From Desulfuromonas acetoxidans DSM 684 (GTDB lineage: Bacteria; Desulfobacterota; Desulfuromonadia; Desulfuromonadales; Desulfuromonadaceae): DNA of 64,000 nucleotides. Below are positions 8,572-60,275 of this stretch, in pieces (the first letter of the stretch is position 1; every line of letters begins with the position of its first letter). Both the position numbers and the translations under genes were made by a program. The stretch is from the NCBI RefSeq assembly GCF_000167355.1, contig NZ_AAEW02000008.1, positions 1 to 64,000 of the forward strand, read 5' to 3'. The notes beneath the pieces were generated by a model. The model saw nothing but the letters and a program-made list of their open reading frames with translations. It made no database searches and was not told where the DNA came from.

Positions 8572-9252
8572 ATGGATACAAACACAACAATTGAAGAACC
8601 GTGTCCTTTATGCCAGTCCGGTGGCAGTGTCCTGTTTGGTGAAGACCGGCGGCGCTGCTATTGGCGTTGTCCCTGTTGCAAACTGGTGTTTGTTGCGCGT
8701 TATGATCTGCCGACCTCACACGAGGAAAAAGCCGAGTACGATCTTCATGAAAACGCTCCGGAGGATGATGGTTATCGGCGTTTTCTCAGTCGCTTGTTCA
8801 ATCCGTTGCAACAGCGCCTTACCGACGATGCACTTGGGTTGGACTTTGGCTGCGGACCCGGACCGACTCTGTCGGTCATGGCCGCAGAATCTGGCCTGCC
8901 GATGAGGCTGTATGATCCGTTTTATGCCCCGGACCTCTCGGTGTTGGCGCATCGCTATGATTTTATTACCGCGACCGAGGTGGTTGAACATCTGCATCGT
9001 CCGGGGGCGGAACTCGATCGGTTATGGGATCTGCTGCAGCCGGGGGGAATCCTTGCCATCATGACCAAGCTGGTCATCGACCAGCAGGCGTTTACGACAT
9101 GGCATTATAAAAACGACCGGACCCATGTGCGCTTTTTTTCCCGTCAGACCTTTCACTGGTTAGCGGAAAAATGGCAAGCGCAACTGGCGTTTATCGATAA
9201 GGATGTTATTTTTCTGCGTAAGTCTGAGCTGAAAGAAGAGGGGGAGCGATGA
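8572..9252 (+). CDS. class I SAM-dependent methyltransferase with N-terminal zinc ribbon
   Basis: This is a predicted methyltransferase of unknown substrate, 226 residues. The front carries two Cys pairs (CPLC near 11 and CPCC near 33) that form a zinc-ribbon-like knuckle. The Rossmann core follows with motif I GLDFGCGPGPTLS (about 88-100), the acidic YDPFYAPD strand and a TATEVVEHL motif typical of Methyltransf_23-type enzymes. The ATG at 8572 lies right after the ppdK terminator; an upstream in-frame start would overlap ppdK and the terminator. The stop overlaps the next start (ATGA at 9249), so the two genes are translationally coupled. The substrate is not predictable from sequence. Confidence 0.82.
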   Translation: MDTNTTIEEPCPLCQSGGSVLFGEDRRRCYWRCPCCKLVFVARYDLPTSHEEKAEYDLHENAPEDDGYRRFLSRLFNPLQQRLTDDALGLDFGCGPGPTLSVMAAESGLPMRLYDPFYAPDLSVLAHRYDFITATEVVEHLHRPGAELDRLWDLLQPGGILAIMTKLVIDQQAFTTWHYKNDRTHVRFFSRQTFHWLAEKWQAQLAFIDKDVIFLRKSELKEEGER

Positions 9253-10214
9253 ATATTGTTGTGTTGGATGGCTATACTCTGAATTCCGGTGATCTGGACT
9301 GGGCACCGCTACAGGCCCTTGGCACGTGTGAAATCTATCCACGCACTGCGCCGGATCAAATTGTTGAGCGCGCCCGCAATGCCGAGATTGTTTTGACCAA
9401 TAAGGTGGTACTGGGCGAGAGGGAGCTGCTGGCGTTGCCGAAACTGCGTTACATTGGTGTGCTGGCGACCGGCACCAATGTCATTAATCTGGAAGTGGCT
9501 GCTCAGCGCCAAATTGTCGTTACCAATGTGCCCGCTTACAGCACCATGTCTGTAGCGCAGATGGTGTTCTCCCTGTTGCTGGAACTGGTGCAGCAGGTGG
9601 GGCATCATGACCGGCGTGTTCATGACGGGGCCTGGAGCGATAGTGTTGACTTCAGTTTTCGTGAAACCCCGTTGATGGAGTTGGACGGTCTGACGCTGGG
9701 GATTGTCGGTTTCGGCCATATCGGCCGGGCTGTGGCGCGGATTGGTGAAAGCTTTGGCATGAACGTGTTGGTGCATGTGCGTCGCTCTCACCGATTTAAG
9801 CAGTTGCATGAGGGGAATGGTCCGAGTGACGCTGAACTCGATCATTTATTCGCTCAATCCGATGTGGTCAGCCTGCATTGCCCGTTGACCGAGCAGACCC
9901 ATCATCTCGTTGATGAGCGGCGGTTGGCCTTGATGAAGCCGGGCGCAATTCTGATTAATACCGCACGTGGACCGTTGCTGGATGAAGTGGCGGTGGCCAA
10001 AGCGTTGCAGGAAGGACATTTGGGTGGCCTCGGTGTCGATGTGCTCAGCAGTGAGCCTCCGGCGACAGATAACCCATTATTGACTGCACCCCATTGTGTC
10101 ATTACTCCGCATATTGCCTGGGCAACTCTGGCGGCACGGCAACGGTTGTTGGAAACCGTGGTGGCTAATGTGGCGGCGTTTCAGGCGGGGGACCCGCAGA
10201 ATGTGGTCAATTAA
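9249..10214 (+). CDS. D-2-hydroxyacid dehydrogenase (glycerate dehydrogenase-like)
   Basis: This is an NAD(P)-dependent dehydrogenase acting on D-2-hydroxy acids, for example glycerate/hydroxypyruvate. The 321 residues show a split substrate domain and a Rossmann domain with GIVGFGHIGRAVARIG (about 153-168). The family signature LMKPGAILINTARGPLLDE (about 225-243) and the catalytic Arg (in NTARG), Glu and His (TPHIAW about 282) are present. GGGGGAG of the upstream gene end supplies the ribosome site. It overlaps the methyltransferase by 4 bases. The exact substrate cannot be fixed. Confidence 0.9.
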   Translation: MNIVVLDGYTLNSGDLDWAPLQALGTCEIYPRTAPDQIVERARNAEIVLTNKVVLGERELLALPKLRYIGVLATGTNVINLEVAAQRQIVVTNVPAYSTMSVAQMVFSLLLELVQQVGHHDRRVHDGAWSDSVDFSFRETPLMELDGLTLGIVGFGHIGRAVARIGESFGMNVLVHVRRSHRFKQLHEGNGPSDAELDHLFAQSDVVSLHCPLTEQTHHLVDERRLALMKPGAILINTARGPLLDEVAVAKALQEGHLGGLGVDVLSSEPPATDNPLLTAPHCVITPHIAWATLAARQRLLETVVANVAAFQAGDPQNVVN

Positions 10215-10243: not shown

Positions 10244-10851
10244 TCTCTTCTCCCGTTCAGCAGCGCCGAACATAAGGAGTGTCGCTGTGATGGTCGTCGG
10301 CAAACTGTTTGAGCGACAGCGAGTTTTTGCCGACATCACAGCGTAAGCGACTGAAGTGAGGGAACCCGTAGGGCGCAATGACGGGAGTCTATTTTATCTC
10401 CCTTTTGTCGATGCAAAAGGGAGCCGACGTGTGGGCGCGGAAGCCCGCGTCACGTGCGTACAACCATCGCAAACAGATGATGTTTTCCAGCGCGACCTAT
10501 TCCGAATGATGACCCACTGAAGATCAAAGTCAAGGTCGCCGGGTTTCGTCCCGGCAGCCGACATACTTTTGACTGGCCGCTCAAAAGTATGCAAAAACCA
10601 GCTTGAACACCTCCTGAACCTGGATCCACCTACACTGTGTCTGTTTCCGATGTGCTTCACATATCCGGCTTGCCTCCCTTTAGCTCGGCAAATCGTGCAA
10701 CTCATCAGCAATGGTGTAAAACGTTGATAACGGTTTGACGCTGCTCTCTATCTCTTCCGTGGCACCGATCAAACGGGCGGGACGGTGCCCGCCCTGCAGT
10801 CGTGTGTTATTCAGCAGCCCAGCCCTTCCGTTCAGCAGCACCGAATGTAAG
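10244..10851 (+). repeat. multi-hairpin intergenic repeat, locus A
   Basis: This roughly 600-bp stretch has no credible gene but shares a series of blocks with 37641-38495. Block X (10244-10377) holds a 17-bp stem at 10284-10304 / 10326-10342. Block Y (10396-10465) holds a perfect 10-bp stem CTCCCTTTTG / CAAAAGGGAG. Block Z (10520-10605) holds a 6-bp stem GCCGGG / CCCGGC and a 9-bp stem ATACTTTTG / CAAAAGTAT. Block W covers 10644-10732. A GGGCGGG / CCCGCCC hairpin lies near 10775-10795. The start of block X recurs at 10823-10851, so the unit is bounded by short direct repeats. Similar hairpin-rich intergenic sequences are widespread in proteobacteria and are often miscalled as small proteins. 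Confidence 0.8.
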
Positions 10852-10871: not shown

Positions 10872-11765
10872 TTAAGACAAGGATGTGAACGAATCGAGCA
10901 GGTTTTTAAGCTGTACCGCACGCTCCGGGGCCAACCTCTCACTCTCCACCGCCAGCTGGCGGGTCTGCTCAGCCAGTTCGAGGTAGAAGGGCAGCCGCTC
11001 AGGACTATGCTCAGCCAATTGTTCCAGATGGCCACGAATGGTGTCGATATCGCCGCGAACGATGGGACCGGTCAACGCCTGATGCGGACCGAGATTCAAG
11101 GTGTTGGTGACGGCTGTCTGGAAGATGGGAGCTAAAACGGTTTTGGCCATGGCGGGATCTTCAAGGGTTTCGGCCATCAGGGTGCTTGCCTGATGGAACA
11201 GGGTGGTGACAAAATTCGAAGCCATGCAGGCGGCAGCATGATAGCGCTCTTTGTCCTCAGAGCGTAATCGGAACGGTTGGCAGCCTAACTCAAGAGACAG
11301 TTTCGCGCCGAGGGGAAACAACTCATCATTCCCTTCGACAGCGCAATAGCTGCCCGGCAACGAATTCAGTCCTTGCTCACCGCTGGCAAAAGTTTGCAAC
11401 GGATGGAGGCTCATCACCTGCCAGTGCGCTGCACGGGGATCATCCGGGCGCAAAATCGCCGCCCGATGGCGACCGCTGAAATGGATGACGGTTGGTGATG
11501 GGGTGTCCGCCAGCACATCAAGTAAGGCTTCGCCCAACGGGGCCAGTTGATCATCGCCGACACAGCATAAGACCAGCTCGGCACGGCTACAGCGTTTCAG
11601 ATCGGTGCCGGCCATCAATGATGCGCCGATAAACTCGGCGGCTTCGTGTGTGCGCTGTTGATCGCGACCAACAATGGCGGTGATCGGATAACCGGCCTGC
11701 TGCAGCAGGGCACCGACGGCCTGGCCGAGGCGTCCCGGTCCGATCAGGGCGATACGCTGTTTCAT
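10872..11765 (-). CDS. Rossmann-like and DUF2520 domain protein
   Basis: The 297-residue protein has an N-terminal NAD(P)-binding fold starting RIALIGPGRLGQAVGALLQQ and a C-terminal helical DUF2520 domain (about 150-285) with the typical YHAAACMASNFVTTL segment. The family resembles short-chain ketopantoate/pyrroline-5-carboxylate reductases, but its reaction is not established here. It is the last gene of a three-gene minus-strand operon; its start overlaps the end of the FAH gene by 4 bases (ATGA), so translation is probably coupled. The ribosome site lies within the upstream gene. Confidence 0.88.
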   Translation of the reverse strand: MKQRIALIGPGRLGQAVGALLQQAGYPITAIVGRDQQRTHEAAEFIGASLMAGTDLKRCSRAELVLCCVGDDQLAPLGEALLDVLADTPSPTVIHFSGRHRAAILRPDDPRAAHWQVMSLHPLQTFASGEQGLNSLPGSYCAVEGNDELFPLGAKLSLELGCQPFRLRSEDKERYHAAACMASNFVTTLFHQASTLMAETLEDPAMAKTVLAPIFQTAVTNTLNLGPHQALTGPIVRGDIDTIRGHLEQLAEHSPERLPFYLELAEQTRQLAVESERLAPERAVQLKNLLDSFTSLS

Positions 11766-35825: not shown

Positions 35826-37550
<1,725 letters not shown>

Positions 37551-37640: not shown

Positions 37641-38495
37641 GAAGCCCTCCCGTACTGAAGTGAGGGAATTCGAAGAGCGCGAAGCCCGGGAGCCCACGTC
37701 ATGTGGGGAGCAACAGCGAGAACGGCTGAAGTGCGCTGGAGCAATTTGTTCCGTATGGTGGACCACAGAAGAACAAAATCAAGGTCAAGATCGCCGGGTT
37801 TCGCCCCGGCAGGCGACATCCTTTTGGCAAGCCGCCCAAAAGGATGCAAAAGCCGGCTAGGGATTCACAGTGATTTCTTGATTTAGATAGGATGAATCGT
37901 TTTCCGTTATGCTTCACTGATTCGGCTCGTTGCCCTTGAGGTCAACGAATCGTGGGCTTCATCAGCGATGGCATTGACGGTGATAAAAAACAGGAGCTTG
38001 AACAACCAAGTTGTGCTGGCACCCTGGCAAAGAGGGAGTGGGCTTTGCCCACCCCAAGGGCAGTAAAATTGAACAGCCCGCGATAAACGAATAGAGCCCC
38101 CAAGCTCTCCCGTACTGCAGCGCCGAACGCAAGGAGCTGGAGCCGTGATGATCGTCGGCAACTGTTTGAGCGTCAGCGAGTTTTGCCGACATCACGGCGG
38201 AAGCGGATGGAGTGAGGGAACCCGTAAGGGCGCATTGGGGTTGTTATGAATCAGAAGAACGAGAGGTGTTGCGTGAGATTTATTGCGTCAGCAAGGCAGA
38301 GGGAGGAGCTATAGTCGTTCTATGGCGACGACCGATAACGCCGCTGACGTGAAAAAGATCCGCAACAACTCCGTGAAGGCTGATTTATGACAACCCCTTG
38401 GGAGTCGATTTTGCGTTCCTTTTGTCGACGCAAAAGGGACCCGAGTGTGGGCGCGGAAGCCCACGTCACGTGGGCACCAACATTGAGAACGGAAA
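37641..38495 (+). repeat. multi-hairpin intergenic repeat, locus B
   Basis: This gene-free region carries the same blocks as 10244-10851, in the same strand and cyclic order. A short fusion of the block X start and end (37641-37666) is followed by the block Y end, block Z (37770-37858: stems GCCGGG/CCCGGC and ATCCTTTTGG/CCAAAAGGAT), block W (37901-37985) and a GTGGGC/GCCCAC hairpin. A full block X comes next (38103-38236, stem 38142-38161/38183-38198), then an inserted element, then block Y (38411-38495). Two stem base pairs differ from locus A by compensatory changes. Confidence 0.8.
38237..38397. mobile_element. 161-bp inverted-repeat element (MITE-like) inserted in repeat locus B
   Basis: The ends GGGGTTGTTATGAATCAG and CTGATTTATGACAACCCC are 18-base inverted repeats with two mismatches. 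The inside is imperfectly palindromic (GCGTCAGC against GCTGACGT and a GTTGCG/CGCAAC pair). It sits exactly between blocks X and Y, which are close together in locus A. It has no coding capacity and the target duplication is unclear (perhaps TT). A matching transposase was not found in the window. Confidence 0.6.
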
Positions 38496-38567
38496 AGGGT
38501 TCGCTGTAGCAACCAGTTCAAACACCGCAAACCACAAAACACCAAATTACTCTACAGAGGAATTTCA

Positions 38568-41180
38568 ATGGATTCAGCATTACGCGTCACCTCCGGCTAC
38601 GACAGCCTCGACCAGATTCTCGACGGACTCCGCATCGGCGACAACGTGGTGTGGGAAGTTGACAGCATCGATGACTACCGCTATTTCATCGGACCCTATG
38701 TCGACCATGCCCTCAAAGAGAATCGACGGGTGATCTACATGCGCTTCGGTGAGCACGAGCCGCTGCTCGGGGCGTCACCCCACATTCGGGTGTGCTCCAT
38801 CGATCCACGCCAGGGCTTTGAACATTTCGCCACCCGCATCCATGAAATCCTCCGCGACGAAGGCACCGGCGCTTTTTACGTTTTCGATTGCCTGTCGGAA
38901 CTGCTTTCCGCCTGGACCACCGACCACATGGTCGGCAACTTTTTCTGGGTCACCTGCCCGTATCTGTTCGAGCTGGATACCGTGGCTTATTTTGCCCTGA
39001 TCCGCCATAGTCACTCGTTTGAAACCCTCGACCGCATCCGTCAGACCACCCAGGTGCTGGTCGATGTCTACCAGGCCGATGGACATTTCTACGTCCACCC
39101 ACGCAAGGTTTGGCAACGCCACTCGCCGACCATGTTCCTGCCGCATCGCAAACACGGTGACCGCTTCATTCCCATCACCAACAGTTGGGAAGCAACTAAG
39201 CTGCTACGTACCCATGGTCGTCGTGAGGGGTACGGTACCCGCTATCTCGATCACTGGCATCAGTTGTTTCTCGAAGCCGAACGCCTGGATCGCGAACAGG
39301 CTGAACCGCGCGAACAACTGACCATGATTCGTCATATTTGCCGTCATATGATTGGCCGCGATGAACGCGTGCTGGCGCTCGCCGAACGCTATTTCTCCTT
39401 GTCTGATCTCATCAACATTCGTTCGCGTATCATCGGTACCGGCTTTATCGGCGGCAAGGCCGTCGGTATGTTGCTCGCTAACCATATCCTCAGTAAAGAA
39501 TTGTCGTTTACCTGGCGCGATGCTCTGGAACCTCATGATTCCTTTTATGTGGGTTCCAACGTCTACTACAGCTACATCGTCCACAATGGCTGGTGGAAAT
39601 TGTTCATGGAGCAAAAAAACACTGATGGCTATTTTTCCGCTGCTGAGACGTTACGCGAGTGCATGATGCAGGGCGTGTTTCCTGAATCGATCCGCGAAGG
39701 GTTCCGGCGCATGCTGGAATATTTTGGACAATACCCGATTATCGTCCGTTCCAGTTCCTTACTGGAAGACGGTTTCGGCAATGCCTTTGCCGGAAAATAC
39801 GATAGTTTTTTCCGCACCAACCAGGGTACCCCGGAAGAGCGGCTGGAGATGTTTGAGGATGCGGTGCGGCGGATTTTTGCCAGTGCCATGAGCGAAGAGG
39901 CGCTGGCCTATCGCCTGCAGCGCGGACTCGATCAGAGCGACGAGCAGATGGCGTTGCTGGTGCAGCGGGTGTCCGGCAGCTACCATGAGCGCTATTACTT
40001 TCCGGAACTGGCCGGGGTCGGCGTGTCGTACAACAGTTTTGTCTGGGATCGTGACATGGAACCCACCGCCGGGATGTTGCGCCTGGTTCTCGGTCTGGGA
40101 ACCCGTGCCGTCGATCGGGTTGATGGTGACTATCCGTGCATTGTCGCTCTGGATGCGCCAATGAAGCGCCCGGTCAAAGGCGTGGAAGACGTGCGCAAGT
40201 TTTCCCAGCGTGATGTCGATGTGCTCAATGTTGAGGAAAACGCGCTGCAGACAGTGTCTACCCTGCGCCTTTCCGGGGCATTACCTGAAATGCCATGGTC
40301 TCTGTATGGTGTGCGCGATACTGAAACCAGCAGCCTTATCCGCAGTCGCACCCGGCAAAAAGAGGATGTCTGGCTGCTCACCTTTGAGCGGTTTCTGGCG
40401 CAGACCGATTTTTGCGCCATGATGCAGAACGCCTTGAAAACACTGGAAAATGCCTACGATTATCCGGTGGATATTGAATTTACTGCCAGTGTTGATACCC
40501 AGCAGACCATCCGTTTGTGCGTGGTGCAGTGCCGTCCGTTGCAGACCAAGGGCATTCAGACTCTGGGTCAGTTGCCGACCGATCTCGATGACGAGCAAGT
40601 GATCTTTCGTAACGAGGGCAATTTTATGGGTGGCAATGTTGCCCACCAATTGAGCTGGATTATCTGGGTCGAGCCTGATGAATATGCCCGTCTCGGCCAT
40701 GCGGATAAATTTGAGGTGGCCCGCCTTATTGGCCGCCTCAACAAGCGCATTGCCGATCGACAGGACAACAAAACCATGCTGCTCGGACCAGGACGCTGGG
40801 GGACATCAACACCGAGTCTCGGCGTGCCAATTGCCTTCAACGAAATTAACAACATGACCATTGTTGGCGAAGTGGCCTTTGAAAGCGGCGGCATGATGCC
40901 GGAGCTATCCTACGGCTCCCACTTTTTCCAGGATCTGGTCGAGAGCGAGATCTTTTATCTGGCGCTTTATCCGGAGCGCCGCGATTGCCAGTTTAACCGT
41001 CAGCGATTATTGAACTTCCACAATGTGTTTGAAGGTTTAATGCCGGCCAGCAGTCGGTTTAAAAAGGTGGTGAAGGTGCTGCAGGTGGAGGATGCCGGAC
41101 TGTATGTCCGTTCTGATGTGGTCAGTCAGCAACTGGTGTGCTACAGCGAAAACGGCGATTATGCTGAATTGCCGGTTTAG
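38568..41180 (+). CDS. PEP/pyruvate-binding domain protein with RecA/KaiC-like N-terminus
   Basis: This large 870-residue protein is of uncertain role. The N-terminus (about 1-230) begins SGYDSLDQILDGLRIGDNVV, the layout of a KaiC/RecA-like domain, but where the Walker A loop GxxxxGKT should be there is EVDSIDDYRYF, so ATP binding there is doubtful. From about 290 to 650 it has a PEP-synthase/PPDK ATP-grasp domain with GTGFIGGKAVGM and YPIIVRSSSLLEDGFGNAF. No phosphohistidine (TSH) domain or PEP barrel is seen. It may be a phosphotransferase or kinase. AGAGGA lies 7 bases before the ATG. Confidence 0.8.
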   Translation: MDSALRVTSGYDSLDQILDGLRIGDNVVWEVDSIDDYRYFIGPYVDHALKENRRVIYMRFGEHEPLLGASPHIRVCSIDPRQGFEHFATRIHEILRDEGTGAFYVFDCLSELLSAWTTDHMVGNFFWVTCPYLFELDTVAYFALIRHSHSFETLDRIRQTTQVLVDVYQADGHFYVHPRKVWQRHSPTMFLPHRKHGDRFIPITNSWEATKLLRTHGRREGYGTRYLDHWHQLFLEAERLDREQAEPREQLTMIRHICRHMIGRDERVLALAERYFSLSDLINIRSRIIGTGFIGGKAVGMLLANHILSKELSFTWRDALEPHDSFYVGSNVYYSYIVHNGWWKLFMEQKNTDGYFSAAETLRECMMQGVFPESIREGFRRMLEYFGQYPIIVRSSSLLEDGFGNAFAGKYDSFFRTNQGTPEERLEMFEDAVRRIFASAMSEEALAYRLQRGLDQSDEQMALLVQRVSGSYHERYYFPELAGVGVSYNSFVWDRDMEPTAGMLRLVLGLGTRAVDRVDGDYPCIVALDAPMKRPVKGVEDVRKFSQRDVDVLNVEENALQTVSTLRLSGALPEMPWSLYGVRDTETSSLIRSRTRQKEDVWLLTFERFLAQTDFCAMMQNALKTLENAYDYPVDIEFTASVDTQQTIRLCVVQCRPLQTKGIQTLGQLPTDLDDEQVIFRNEGNFMGGNVAHQLSWIIWVEPDEYARLGHADKFEVARLIGRLNKRIADRQDNKTMLLGPGRWGTSTPSLGVPIAFNEINNMTIVGEVAFESGGMMPELSYGSHFFQDLVESEIFYLALYPERRDCQFNRQRLLNFHNVFEGLMPASSRFKKVVKVLQVEDAGLYVRSDVVSQQLVCYSENGDYAELPV

Positions 41181-59890: not shown

Positions 59891-59957
59891 CCATTGTGAC
59901 CCTTGACCTTGCGCATGTCGACCGAATCATCCCCTTCGGTACTGTTGACATTAAACC

Positions 59958-60126
59958 ACGATAGCAGGTCTTCTGACTTCCGGATCATCCTCCAATCGCG
60001 CCTTCCCGAAGTCATTCTTCAGTGGCGTTATGCGATTGTTGTCCCCGGTTACAGCGGTGGGTCCGTTCCCGATTTTCACGGGATTCCCTTTTCAGCAGCC
60101 GCGGAGGCTTGGTGGCTCCTATGGCT
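59958..60126 (-). ncRNA. cobalamin riboswitch
   Basis: Read on the minus strand, the conserved parts occur in order: GGGAA...GTGAAAATC...ACGGACCCACCGCTGTAA, the B12-box core GCCACTG, GGGAAGGCGC, GATGATCCGGAAGTCAG and AAGACCTGCTATC. They match the cobalamin riboswitch consensus. The terminator at 59852-59890 follows after about 70 bases. Cobalamin binding should reduce expression of btuB and the genes behind it. No clear promoter was found in 60127-60275. Confidence 0.93.
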
Positions 60127-60275
60127 GAACACTGTCGTGGTGAACGTATTTAATTGTTGTGAGCTATGTCCTGTCGTGTATACAAAAAGGCCATGGCGGA
60201 GATAGGTATAGCTGATTTGCGGCGATGCTCGCAACAGCTTTCTTGTTTTTAGGGGAAAAAATAATTCTCAAAGAG

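What the first reader, a model, noticed from the sequence alone, without database searches (positions are those of the whole stretch)
10244..10851. Hairpin-rich intergenic unit with base-pair covariation (locus A)
Five or more stems occur in a 600-base gene-free stretch and recur at 37641-38495. In block X, pair T10286-A10340 here is C38144-G38196 there. In block Z, pair A10565-T10588 here is C37820-G37843 there. Both changes preserve pairing inside otherwise conserved stems, so the fold is under selection. The unit is bounded by direct repeats of its own start (10244-10275 and 10823-10851), suggesting head-to-tail or recombination-based spread. It could be a structured RNA or a non-autonomous mobile element acting as single-stranded hairpins.
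Basis: seen in the sequence. Interest (0 to 1): 0.7.

Follow-up and report, generated by a model that had tools for sequence, protein, structure and literature searches.

The report
Ancient hairpin repeat arrays between genes
A bacterium carries scores of long intergenic repeats built from hairpins; sister species keep them in the same places while their fold is preserved, which points to an unknown job for folded DNA or RNA.

Summary
Locus A (10244-10851) is one unit of a repeat family with 119 matches in its own genome, mostly in head-to-tail arrays of period about 580. In a sister species 11 of 12 placeable elements lie in the same gap and orientation, yet array lengths differ up to about sixfold. 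Paired columns diverge half as much as unpaired ones. There is no coding signal, no Rfam family, and no phage, plasmid or transposase link in the searches made. Best reading: a very long, composite REP/BIME-like repeat whose fold is maintained and whose arrays grow and shrink in place; not an element now moving. Whether the folded form is DNA or RNA is open. The most conserved hairpin ends in a C(GNA)G or C(GNNA)G cap; an exact cap motif occurs in at least 118 stretches of other genomes from several phyla, with arms that vary but mostly stay complementary.

The parts
10244..10851 (+). Locus A: one full repeat unit (the query unit of this study), between the 3' ends of two convergent ORFs (9249-10214 + and 10872-11765 -)
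10250..10387 (+).
10283..10343 (+). Cap hairpin: lower stem CGCTGTGAT.., 5'-side bulge, upper stem GTCGGCAA/TTGCCGAC, cap TGTTTGAGC(GACA)GCGAG; loop GACA at 10315-10318 closed by C-G
   Evidence: pair T10286-A10340 covaries
10398..10423 (+). Y hairpin CTCCCTTTTG..CAAAAGGGAG; stem pairs of several Watson-Crick types among copies
   Evidence: module B1
10427..10456 (+). W hairpin GGGC..GCCC with outer ACGTG/CACGTG arms
   Evidence: module B1
10538..10555 (+). Z1 hairpin GCCGGG..CCCGGC, preceded by AAGATCAAAGTCAAGG; commonest left edge of arrays
10562..10591 (+). Z2 hairpin CATACTTTTG..CAAAAGTATG; pair A10565-T10588 covaries
   Evidence: module B2
10670..10691 (+). V hairpin TTGCC..GGCAA
   Evidence: module B3
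10775..10794 (+). U hairpin GGGCGGG..CCCGCCC
   Evidence: module U
10823..10851 (+). Second copy of the unit's start: the junction sequence of the head-to-tail arrays
37641..38548 (+). Locus B: diverged, mosaic copy (modules B, A, insert, B fragment) between ORFs 36201-37550 and 38568-41180
38237..38397 (+). Insert module: 161-nt near-complete hairpin with GGGGTTGT.. ends; 22 of 22 copies in the selected loci sit 2-3 bases before the same unit position (136-140); copies are 83-98.8% identical to this one

Best explanation
Locus A is one unit of an old, vertically inherited, hairpin-built intergenic repeat family: in kind a REP/BIME-like repeat, but about 580-600 bp long, made of about seven different hairpin modules and arranged head-to-tail. 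Shown: many copies, array structure, sites and orientation shared across species, length change in place, pair-preserving substitutions. Inferred: the copies are kept because the folded hairpins are recognised by a host factor, as REP/BIME sites are, and unequal exchange between units changes array length. I lean to folded DNA (cruciform or exposed single strand) over RNA, about 0.4 to 0.3, because orientation to the genes is random and the best-conserved cap has the form of the known hyperstable DNA loops d(cGNAg)/d(cGNNAg). How the family first spread is not known.
For: 119 matches in own genome; Z motif with up to 3 mismatches: G000 104, G008 162, G007 43, G002 17, reversed control 0. Module A, 31 pairs over 99 copies: 96.1% of cells Watson-Crick, 13 pairs with two or more WC types (pairs chosen from the same data). 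Shared sites: when both sides changed, the pair stays standard in 27 of 32 (G008) and 7 of 9 (G007); paired columns diverge 0.064 versus unpaired 0.137, and 0.095 versus 0.203. Sites: 11 of 12 placeable G000 elements (17 in all) and 11 of 11 placeable G008 elements (19 in all) shared, same orientation; G007 5 of 6. Copies scatter around a common consensus: G007-G007 0.774, G007-G008 0.800; G000-G000 0.840, G000-G008 0.846; G000-G007 0.791, against 4-fold sites 0.615 for G000-G007. Two arrays are 97.0% (1333 bp) and 98.5% (597 bp) identical between G000 and G008 beside silent sites at 0.719 and 0.786. No coding signal. Cap tetraloops 71 GNYA to 2 GNRA.
Against: 4 of 10 G000-G008 pairs are less conserved than flanking 4-fold sites (0.83-0.895 against 0.93-0.94), so sequence at a site also turns over. 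One-sided pair-breaking changes are frequent (A-C 25 and other 56 in G008; 17 and 33 in G007). G008 copies are more alike among themselves (0.880) than to G000 (0.846) or G007 (0.800), so some homogenisation exists. G-T exceeds A-C on the + strand in the Y/W hairpins (60 to 3), module A (47 to 22) and the insert (24 to 1), which fits RNA; the other modules do not agree (66 to 45, 21 to 55, 21 to 18). No protein partner found. The convergent-gene bias is strong only in the best-scoring arrays (25 of 41) and uneven in unselected stretches (G000 4 of 17, G008 10 of 19, G007 2 of 7). Genes are my own ORF picks, not curated.
Confidence: 0.6

Rival explanations
1. The arrays encode structured RNA: each unit, or the whole array, is transcribed from the + strand and works as a folded RNA.
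For: One-strand G-T excess in the Y/W hairpins (60 to 3) and in the 161-nt insert (24 to 1 on consensus Watson-Crick pairs shared by both strands' folds; further fixed G-T pairs). Covariation in long-range stems of module A.
Against: No Rfam match above gathering score on the element, only weak ones below it. Orientation to co-directional neighbours random, 11 same and 12 opposite. Z-motif number 17 to 162 between sister species is odd for an RNA gene. Tetraloops avoid GNRA, 2 of 73.
Confidence: 0.25
2. A non-autonomous mobile element moved by a single-strand transposase (IS200/IS605- or RAYT-like) and still spreading.
For: High, lineage-specific copy number; hairpins; 4 Y1 transposase matches in the genome; short gaps in more distant relatives (42 to 174 bp at sites A and B).
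Against: Sites shared: 11 of 12 and 11 of 11 placeable. No clear unit at 20 fetched Y1 regions of four species (best match E 0.059, 48 bases, L153); no Y1 protein in the far cap-motif loci by phmmer with four G000 proteins. No match in phage or plasmid collections; exact cap motif absent from viral contigs. Array edges are ragged.
Confidence: 0.12
3. Neutral relics: old repeats whose palindromes are kept perfect by template-switch mutation and gene conversion, with no function.
For: Turnover at 4 of 10 sites; near-identical units within an array or between neighbouring loci, up to 98%; higher identity inside G008 (0.880) than to other species; frequent one-sided breaks.
Against: In G007 and G002 copies are no more alike within than between genomes (0.774 and 0.810 within; 0.788-0.826 to G000, G001, G008 and each other). 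Unpaired columns also diverge less than silent sites overall (0.137 against 0.19; 0.203 against 0.385). Stem columns 108 apart covary (pair 16/124: GC 45, AT 39).
Confidence: 0.15

Closest known systems
REP / BIME repeats (GTAG and CGTC families; PMC3733652 passages, PMC2817692 listing)
   Same: Many intergenic palindromic copies, clusters, few between divergent genes, no coding capacity
   Different: REPs are 20-40 bp with 5-13 bp stems and a GTAG or CGTC tag, mostly in head-to-head dimers; here the unit is about 580-600 bp, about seven hairpins, head-to-tail, practically without GTAG tag (2 of 97) and without a linked transposase in the loci checked
MRSC-65-2 motif (PMC11109978, passages)
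   Same: Single long covarying stem, dozens of copies per genome, many phyla; authors say the structure may be relevant as DNA
   Different: Its conserved UYCCGG repeat was found near only 2 of 125 cap motifs; its figure and alignment were not seen, so identity is neither shown nor excluded
'Multicopy nucleotide sequences' of Geobacter and Pelobacter genomes (PMC2700814, PMC2996986, PMC3543383; passages)
   Same: Intergenic multicopy, some palindromic, probably related bacteria (recalled taxonomy)
   Different: Alignments are in supplements that could not be opened here; the passages speak of palindromic families and direct repeats of 6 to 42 nt; relation untested
Phage N4 hairpin promoters (PMC12633501, passages)
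   Different: A phage promoter read by a virion polymerase; no such role is implied here

Membership tests
REP (GTAG type, RAYT-linked) | GTAG/GTGG tetranucleotide at the hairpin foot | tested here: not met
   2 of 97 copies with GTAG or GTGG in the 26 nt searched beside the cap hairpin; the other hairpins were not tested
REP (GTAG type, RAYT-linked) | Copies flanking a Y1/RAYT gene | tested here: not met
   No clear unit at 20 fetched Y1 regions of G000, G008, G007, G002 (best E 0.059)
REP (CGTC type) | CGTC tag at the foot | tested here: inconclusive
   CGTC within 26 nt in 58 of 97 copies, shuffled expectation 6.2
REP (CGTC type) | 8-9 bp stem with 4-5 nt loop, CCA-like tail (PMC3733652, passages) | tested here: not met
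   Cap hairpin has two stems, a bulge and about 60 nt; tail not tested
BIME | Mosaic of several palindromic modules in extragenic DNA | tested here: met
   Modules A, insert and B in varying combinations
BIME | Alternating orientation of units | tested here: not met
   Head-to-tail in the arrays of G000, G008, G007, G002; one opposite neighbour pair in G009 (L125) and head-to-head pairs in distant relatives
BIME | Bound by gyrase, IHF or similar host proteins | not testable with these tools
   needs experiment
MITE / IS200-605-derived element | Defined ends, site polymorphism between close relatives | tested here: not met
   Ragged ends; 11 of 12 placeable sites shared
Known structured RNA (Rfam 15) | Covariance-model match | tested here: not met
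   Window at gathering: only a cobalamin riboswitch elsewhere; relaxed: 2 weak matches on locus A, 4 in five other loci, all below gathering score
Coding repeat | Codon periodicity, frame-keeping indels | tested here: not met
   Module B, 137 copies: codon-position variability 0.110/0.114/0.119; 107 of 111 deletions are 1 nt

The most novel reading that the evidence does not exclude
The cap hairpin is the visible part of an undescribed, phylum-spanning structural signal: an invariant C(GNA)G- or C(GNNA)G-type cap (CTGTYTGAGCG-N-AGCGAGTTTTT in the exact form searched) on a long bulged stem whose arms may have almost any sequence so long as they pair, used by unrelated bacteria as a folded single-strand address for a common but unknown factor; the bacteria studied here have built it into arrays of 580-bp units.
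Probability: 0.3. Interest if true: 0.8.

Novelty: new variant of a known kind. Interest (0 to 1): 0.55.

Why it matters
Bacterial intergenic DNA usually turns over fast. A repeat family that keeps sites and orientation across species while its array length changes, and whose base pairs survive through compensatory changes, makes the old question of what REP-like repeats do for their host testable: delete one conserved array, or find the protein that binds the cap. If the cap hairpin is one signal across phyla, there should be one widespread partner to find.

Tried and rejected
Non-autonomous element of a RAYT: Y1 genes exist in 36 of 40 genomes searched, so presence does not discriminate, and no clear unit lies near those checked. 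Convergent-gene preference: 25 of 41 placed loci in the best-scoring set looked decisive, but unselected stretches gave a weaker and uneven excess, so I do not rest on it. Same-strand preference (11 of 14 in the selected set, counted by eye) vanished in unselected stretches (11 to 12). Terminator role: terminator-like sites between gene and array 10 of 65 in the selected loci and 3 of 42 in windows of about 47 bp in unselected ones, against 9 of 450 (40 bp) and 52 of 450 (60 bp) without arrays: no clear difference; my terminator test is crude. It also found terminator-like sites inside 26 (+) and 40 (-) of 47 full copies, without a shuffle control. Strand test in far phyla (GT 19, AC 44) is not informative because the 5' bulge shifts the register. 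UYCCGG identity with MRSC-65-2: 2 of 125. Replication-strand bias: strand counts 59/45 in G000, 21/22 in G007, 10/7 in G002, 111/51 in G008; origin unknown, left open. Literature: no paper for Desulfuromonas with 'intergenic repeat' or 'repetitive extragenic palindromic', none relevant among 4 for the cap strings; two searches gave nothing useful.

Papers: PMC2700814, PMC2996986, PMC3543383, PMC3733652, PMC11109978, PMC6006769, PMC10527192, PMC12633501, PMC5090098: passages only; PMC8049555: abstract and outline; PMC2817692: search listing. Nakano et al. 2002 was seen as a reference title only. Template-switch correction, the d(cGNAg) triloop class and N4 details beyond the passages are recalled.

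Full report
What was checked. Locus A and locus B were read. The stems and the two covarying pairs are at the stated coordinates. The one ORF of 100 aa or more inside locus A (105 aa, minus strand) has no coding support: over 137 copies of module B variability by codon position is flat (0.110, 0.114, 0.119) and 107 of 111 deletions relative to consensus are of one base.

Size of the family. The 608-base unit has 119 matches in its own genome (G000, 3.82 Mb, 51 contigs; 40 of 118 first-look candidates were scored, so this is not a full count). A 37-base pattern over the Z hairpins, up to 3 mismatches, gives 104 sites in G000, 162 in G008, 43 in G007, 17 in G002, and none for the reversed control. 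Of 58 genomes searched with the unit (own included, up to ten candidates scored each), 30 match; outside the family the matches are weak. No match in 50,697 phage or 72,556 plasmid records. Rfam gives nothing above gathering score on the element.

Anatomy. Most fetched loci hold head-to-tail arrays with a period near 580 bases that overlap by the junction sequence CTCCCGTTCAGCAGCnCCGAACGCAAG. Array edges are ragged; the commonest left edge lies just before the Z1 hairpin, in a few cases after a short hexanucleotide run. Locus A, running from junction to junction, is a permuted single unit. The modules are: A (a closing stem, an inner stem and the cap hairpin), Y and W hairpins, Z1 and Z2, V, U. 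In many units a 161-nt insert sits between A and the rest: 22 copies in the selected loci, all 2-3 bases before unit position 136-140 (the five further hits are the palindrome matching its own complement). Copies are 85-97.5% identical to the window copy in the selected loci and 83-98.8% in the unselected stretches. It folds into one long hairpin.

Covariation. On 47 full copies RNAalifold gives -298.6 kcal/mol, of which 146.7 is the covariation term. In module A, pairs found in the folds of both strands: 31 pairs, 99 copies, 96.1% Watson-Crick, 13 pairs with two or more Watson-Crick types each in two or more copies. On 44 sequences reaching more distant genomes the folding gain is small (covariation term -1.5 of -20.4 kcal/mol), but 11 of 24 predicted pairs include double changes that keep the pair; one pair is CG 20, UA 14, AU 5. 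Comparing shared sites only, when both sides changed the pair remains standard in 27 of 32 (G000-G008) and 7 of 9 (G000-G007), and paired columns diverge about half as much as unpaired (0.064 and 0.137; 0.095 and 0.203). Against this, one-sided changes were wobble 43, A-C 25, other mismatch 56 (G008) and 27, 17, 33 (G007). In multi-unit arrays the aligned units may not be strictly orthologous, and the structure was derived from the same family, so these counts lean towards it.

Which strand and which molecule. G-T versus A-C departures on the + strand: module A 47 to 22, Y/W 60 to 3, Z 66 to 45, V 21 to 55, U 21 to 18; insert 24 to 1 on consensus Watson-Crick pairs shared by both strands' folds. 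The sharpest modules therefore look as if the + strand is the one that folds, as RNA or as single-strand DNA; others do not. Orientation to co-directional neighbours is random: 11 same, 12 opposite over 1.26 Mb of unselected sequence from three species, whose sites partly correspond. The cap loop is C(GNA)G or C(GNNA)G in 67 of 99 module A copies; of the other 32, 21 are printed and 20 of these carry a longer variant. Among tetraloops in the loci of this order 71 are GNYA and 2 GNRA, unlike the RNA favourite GNRA. d(cGNNAg) is a selected stable DNA tetraloop (title of Nakano et al. 2002 in the reference list of PMC5090098); PMC10527192 states that a CGCGAAGCG segment forms an extraordinarily stable hairpin and lists one with a two-base-pair stem at 76.5 C, without its sequence. 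The N4 P1 promoter printed in PMC12633501 holds the same GCGAAGC cap. This makes a DNA form attractive, not proven.

Shared sites. Stretches of G000 (498 kb), G008 (600 kb) and G007 (160 kb) were compared by reciprocal best protein hits. Of 17 G000 elements 12 were placeable in G008: 11 occupied in the same orientation, 1 empty (a 112-base fragment); two of the 11 share one G008 array. Of 19 G008 elements 11 were placeable in G000, all occupied, same orientation. Of 7 G007 elements 6 were placeable in G000, 5 occupied, 1 empty; of 7 G000 C8 elements 4 were placeable in G007, all occupied. Locus A is 601 bases in G000, 1660 in G008, 389 in G007; locus B 862, 2264, 848. More distant relatives have short gaps at these sites: 147 and 126 bases at B in G011 and G013; 106, 42 and 174 bases at A in G009, G013 and G011. 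In G002, a same-genus genome, the gap at A is 355 bases without a match, and B is partly occupied.

Constraint or turnover. 4-fold sites agree at 0.810 (G000-G008) and 0.615 (G000-G007) over the C8 stretch. Elements at shared sites agree at 0.807-0.985 (10 pairs, G008) and 0.819-0.885 (5 pairs, G007). Against local silent sites the element is more conserved in 6 of 10 and 5 of 5 pairs and less in 4 of 10; two of the six are nearly equal (0.818 to 0.809, 0.807 to 0.786). Two arrays stand out: 1333 bases at 97.0% beside silent sites at 0.719, and 597 bases at 98.5% beside 0.786. Mean identity of module B copies at different loci: within G007 0.774, G007 to G008 0.800, G007 to G000 0.791; within G002 0.810, to G000 0.817; within G000 0.840, to G008 0.846; but within G008 0.880. 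So most species show no homogenisation of their own, G008 some. Detection by similarity sets a floor, so absolute levels should be read with care.

Position relative to genes. In the best-scoring set of G000, 25 loci lie between convergent, 14 between co-directional, 2 between divergent genes, 3 at edges. Unselected stretches: G000 4, 11, 2; G008 10, 8, 1; G007 2, 4, 1, against backgrounds of 59/285/59, 67/325/68 and 21/84/22 gene pairs. High-scoring arrays favour convergent gaps; for the family as a whole this is clear only in G008.

How far the family reaches. A covariance model of module A hits 71 of 277 genomes of the class, 31 of 82 genera, own included, with strict filters; in distant families the element is tandem with period 278 (L225) or in head-to-head pairs (L231, L229). 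The 81 distinct left arms pair with their own right arms at 81.2% over eight positions, with shuffled partners at 47.3%, best of four registers in both. Whether all these are one family by descent, or the same solution reached repeatedly, is not settled.

Enzymes. Four Y1 transposase matches lie in G000. No clear unit lies at the 20 Y1 regions fetched from four species; the best match is 48 bases at E 0.059 in L153. None of the far cap-motif loci has a Y1 protein by phmmer with four G000 proteins; this search is narrow.

Verdict. The finding is real and more interesting than an isolated pair of loci: a very long composite REP/BIME-like repeat with conserved fold and shared sites. It fails the tag and transposase tests that define GTAG REPs, so it may work like such repeats without being filed as one. 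The molecule that folds and the partner that reads it are unknown.

Noticed in passing
window 38237-38397: 161-nt near-complete hairpin at one fixed junction of the repeat unit, up to 98.8% identical to a copy in the sister species, with G-T to A-C departures 24 to 1: the strongest hint of a strand-specific fold in the family.
   Followed up: partly
G000 C1:50952-52284 and C1:162988-163584 (in L160, L166): Two non-coding arrays 97.0% and 98.5% identical to the sister species although flanking silent sites are only 0.719 and 0.786 identical.
   Followed up: partly
L263-L376 (genome-contig scan): An invariant hairpin cap with varying but mostly complementary arms in many phyla; Ralstonia records carry at least two arm families on the same cap.
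   Followed up: partly
L073, L069 upstream of the array: Short hexanucleotide runs (TCAAGG, GCAAGA) directly before the Z1 hairpin, as if the array edge seeds a microsatellite.
   Followed up: no
window 59946-60151 (-): Cobalamin riboswitch, 120.6 bits.
   Followed up: no
G000 C8:70414-71807 (L138): Two Y1 transposase ORFs of 237 aa in tandem, nearly identical in the 60 residues printed, about 6 kb beyond the window, without repeat units beside them.
   Followed up: partly
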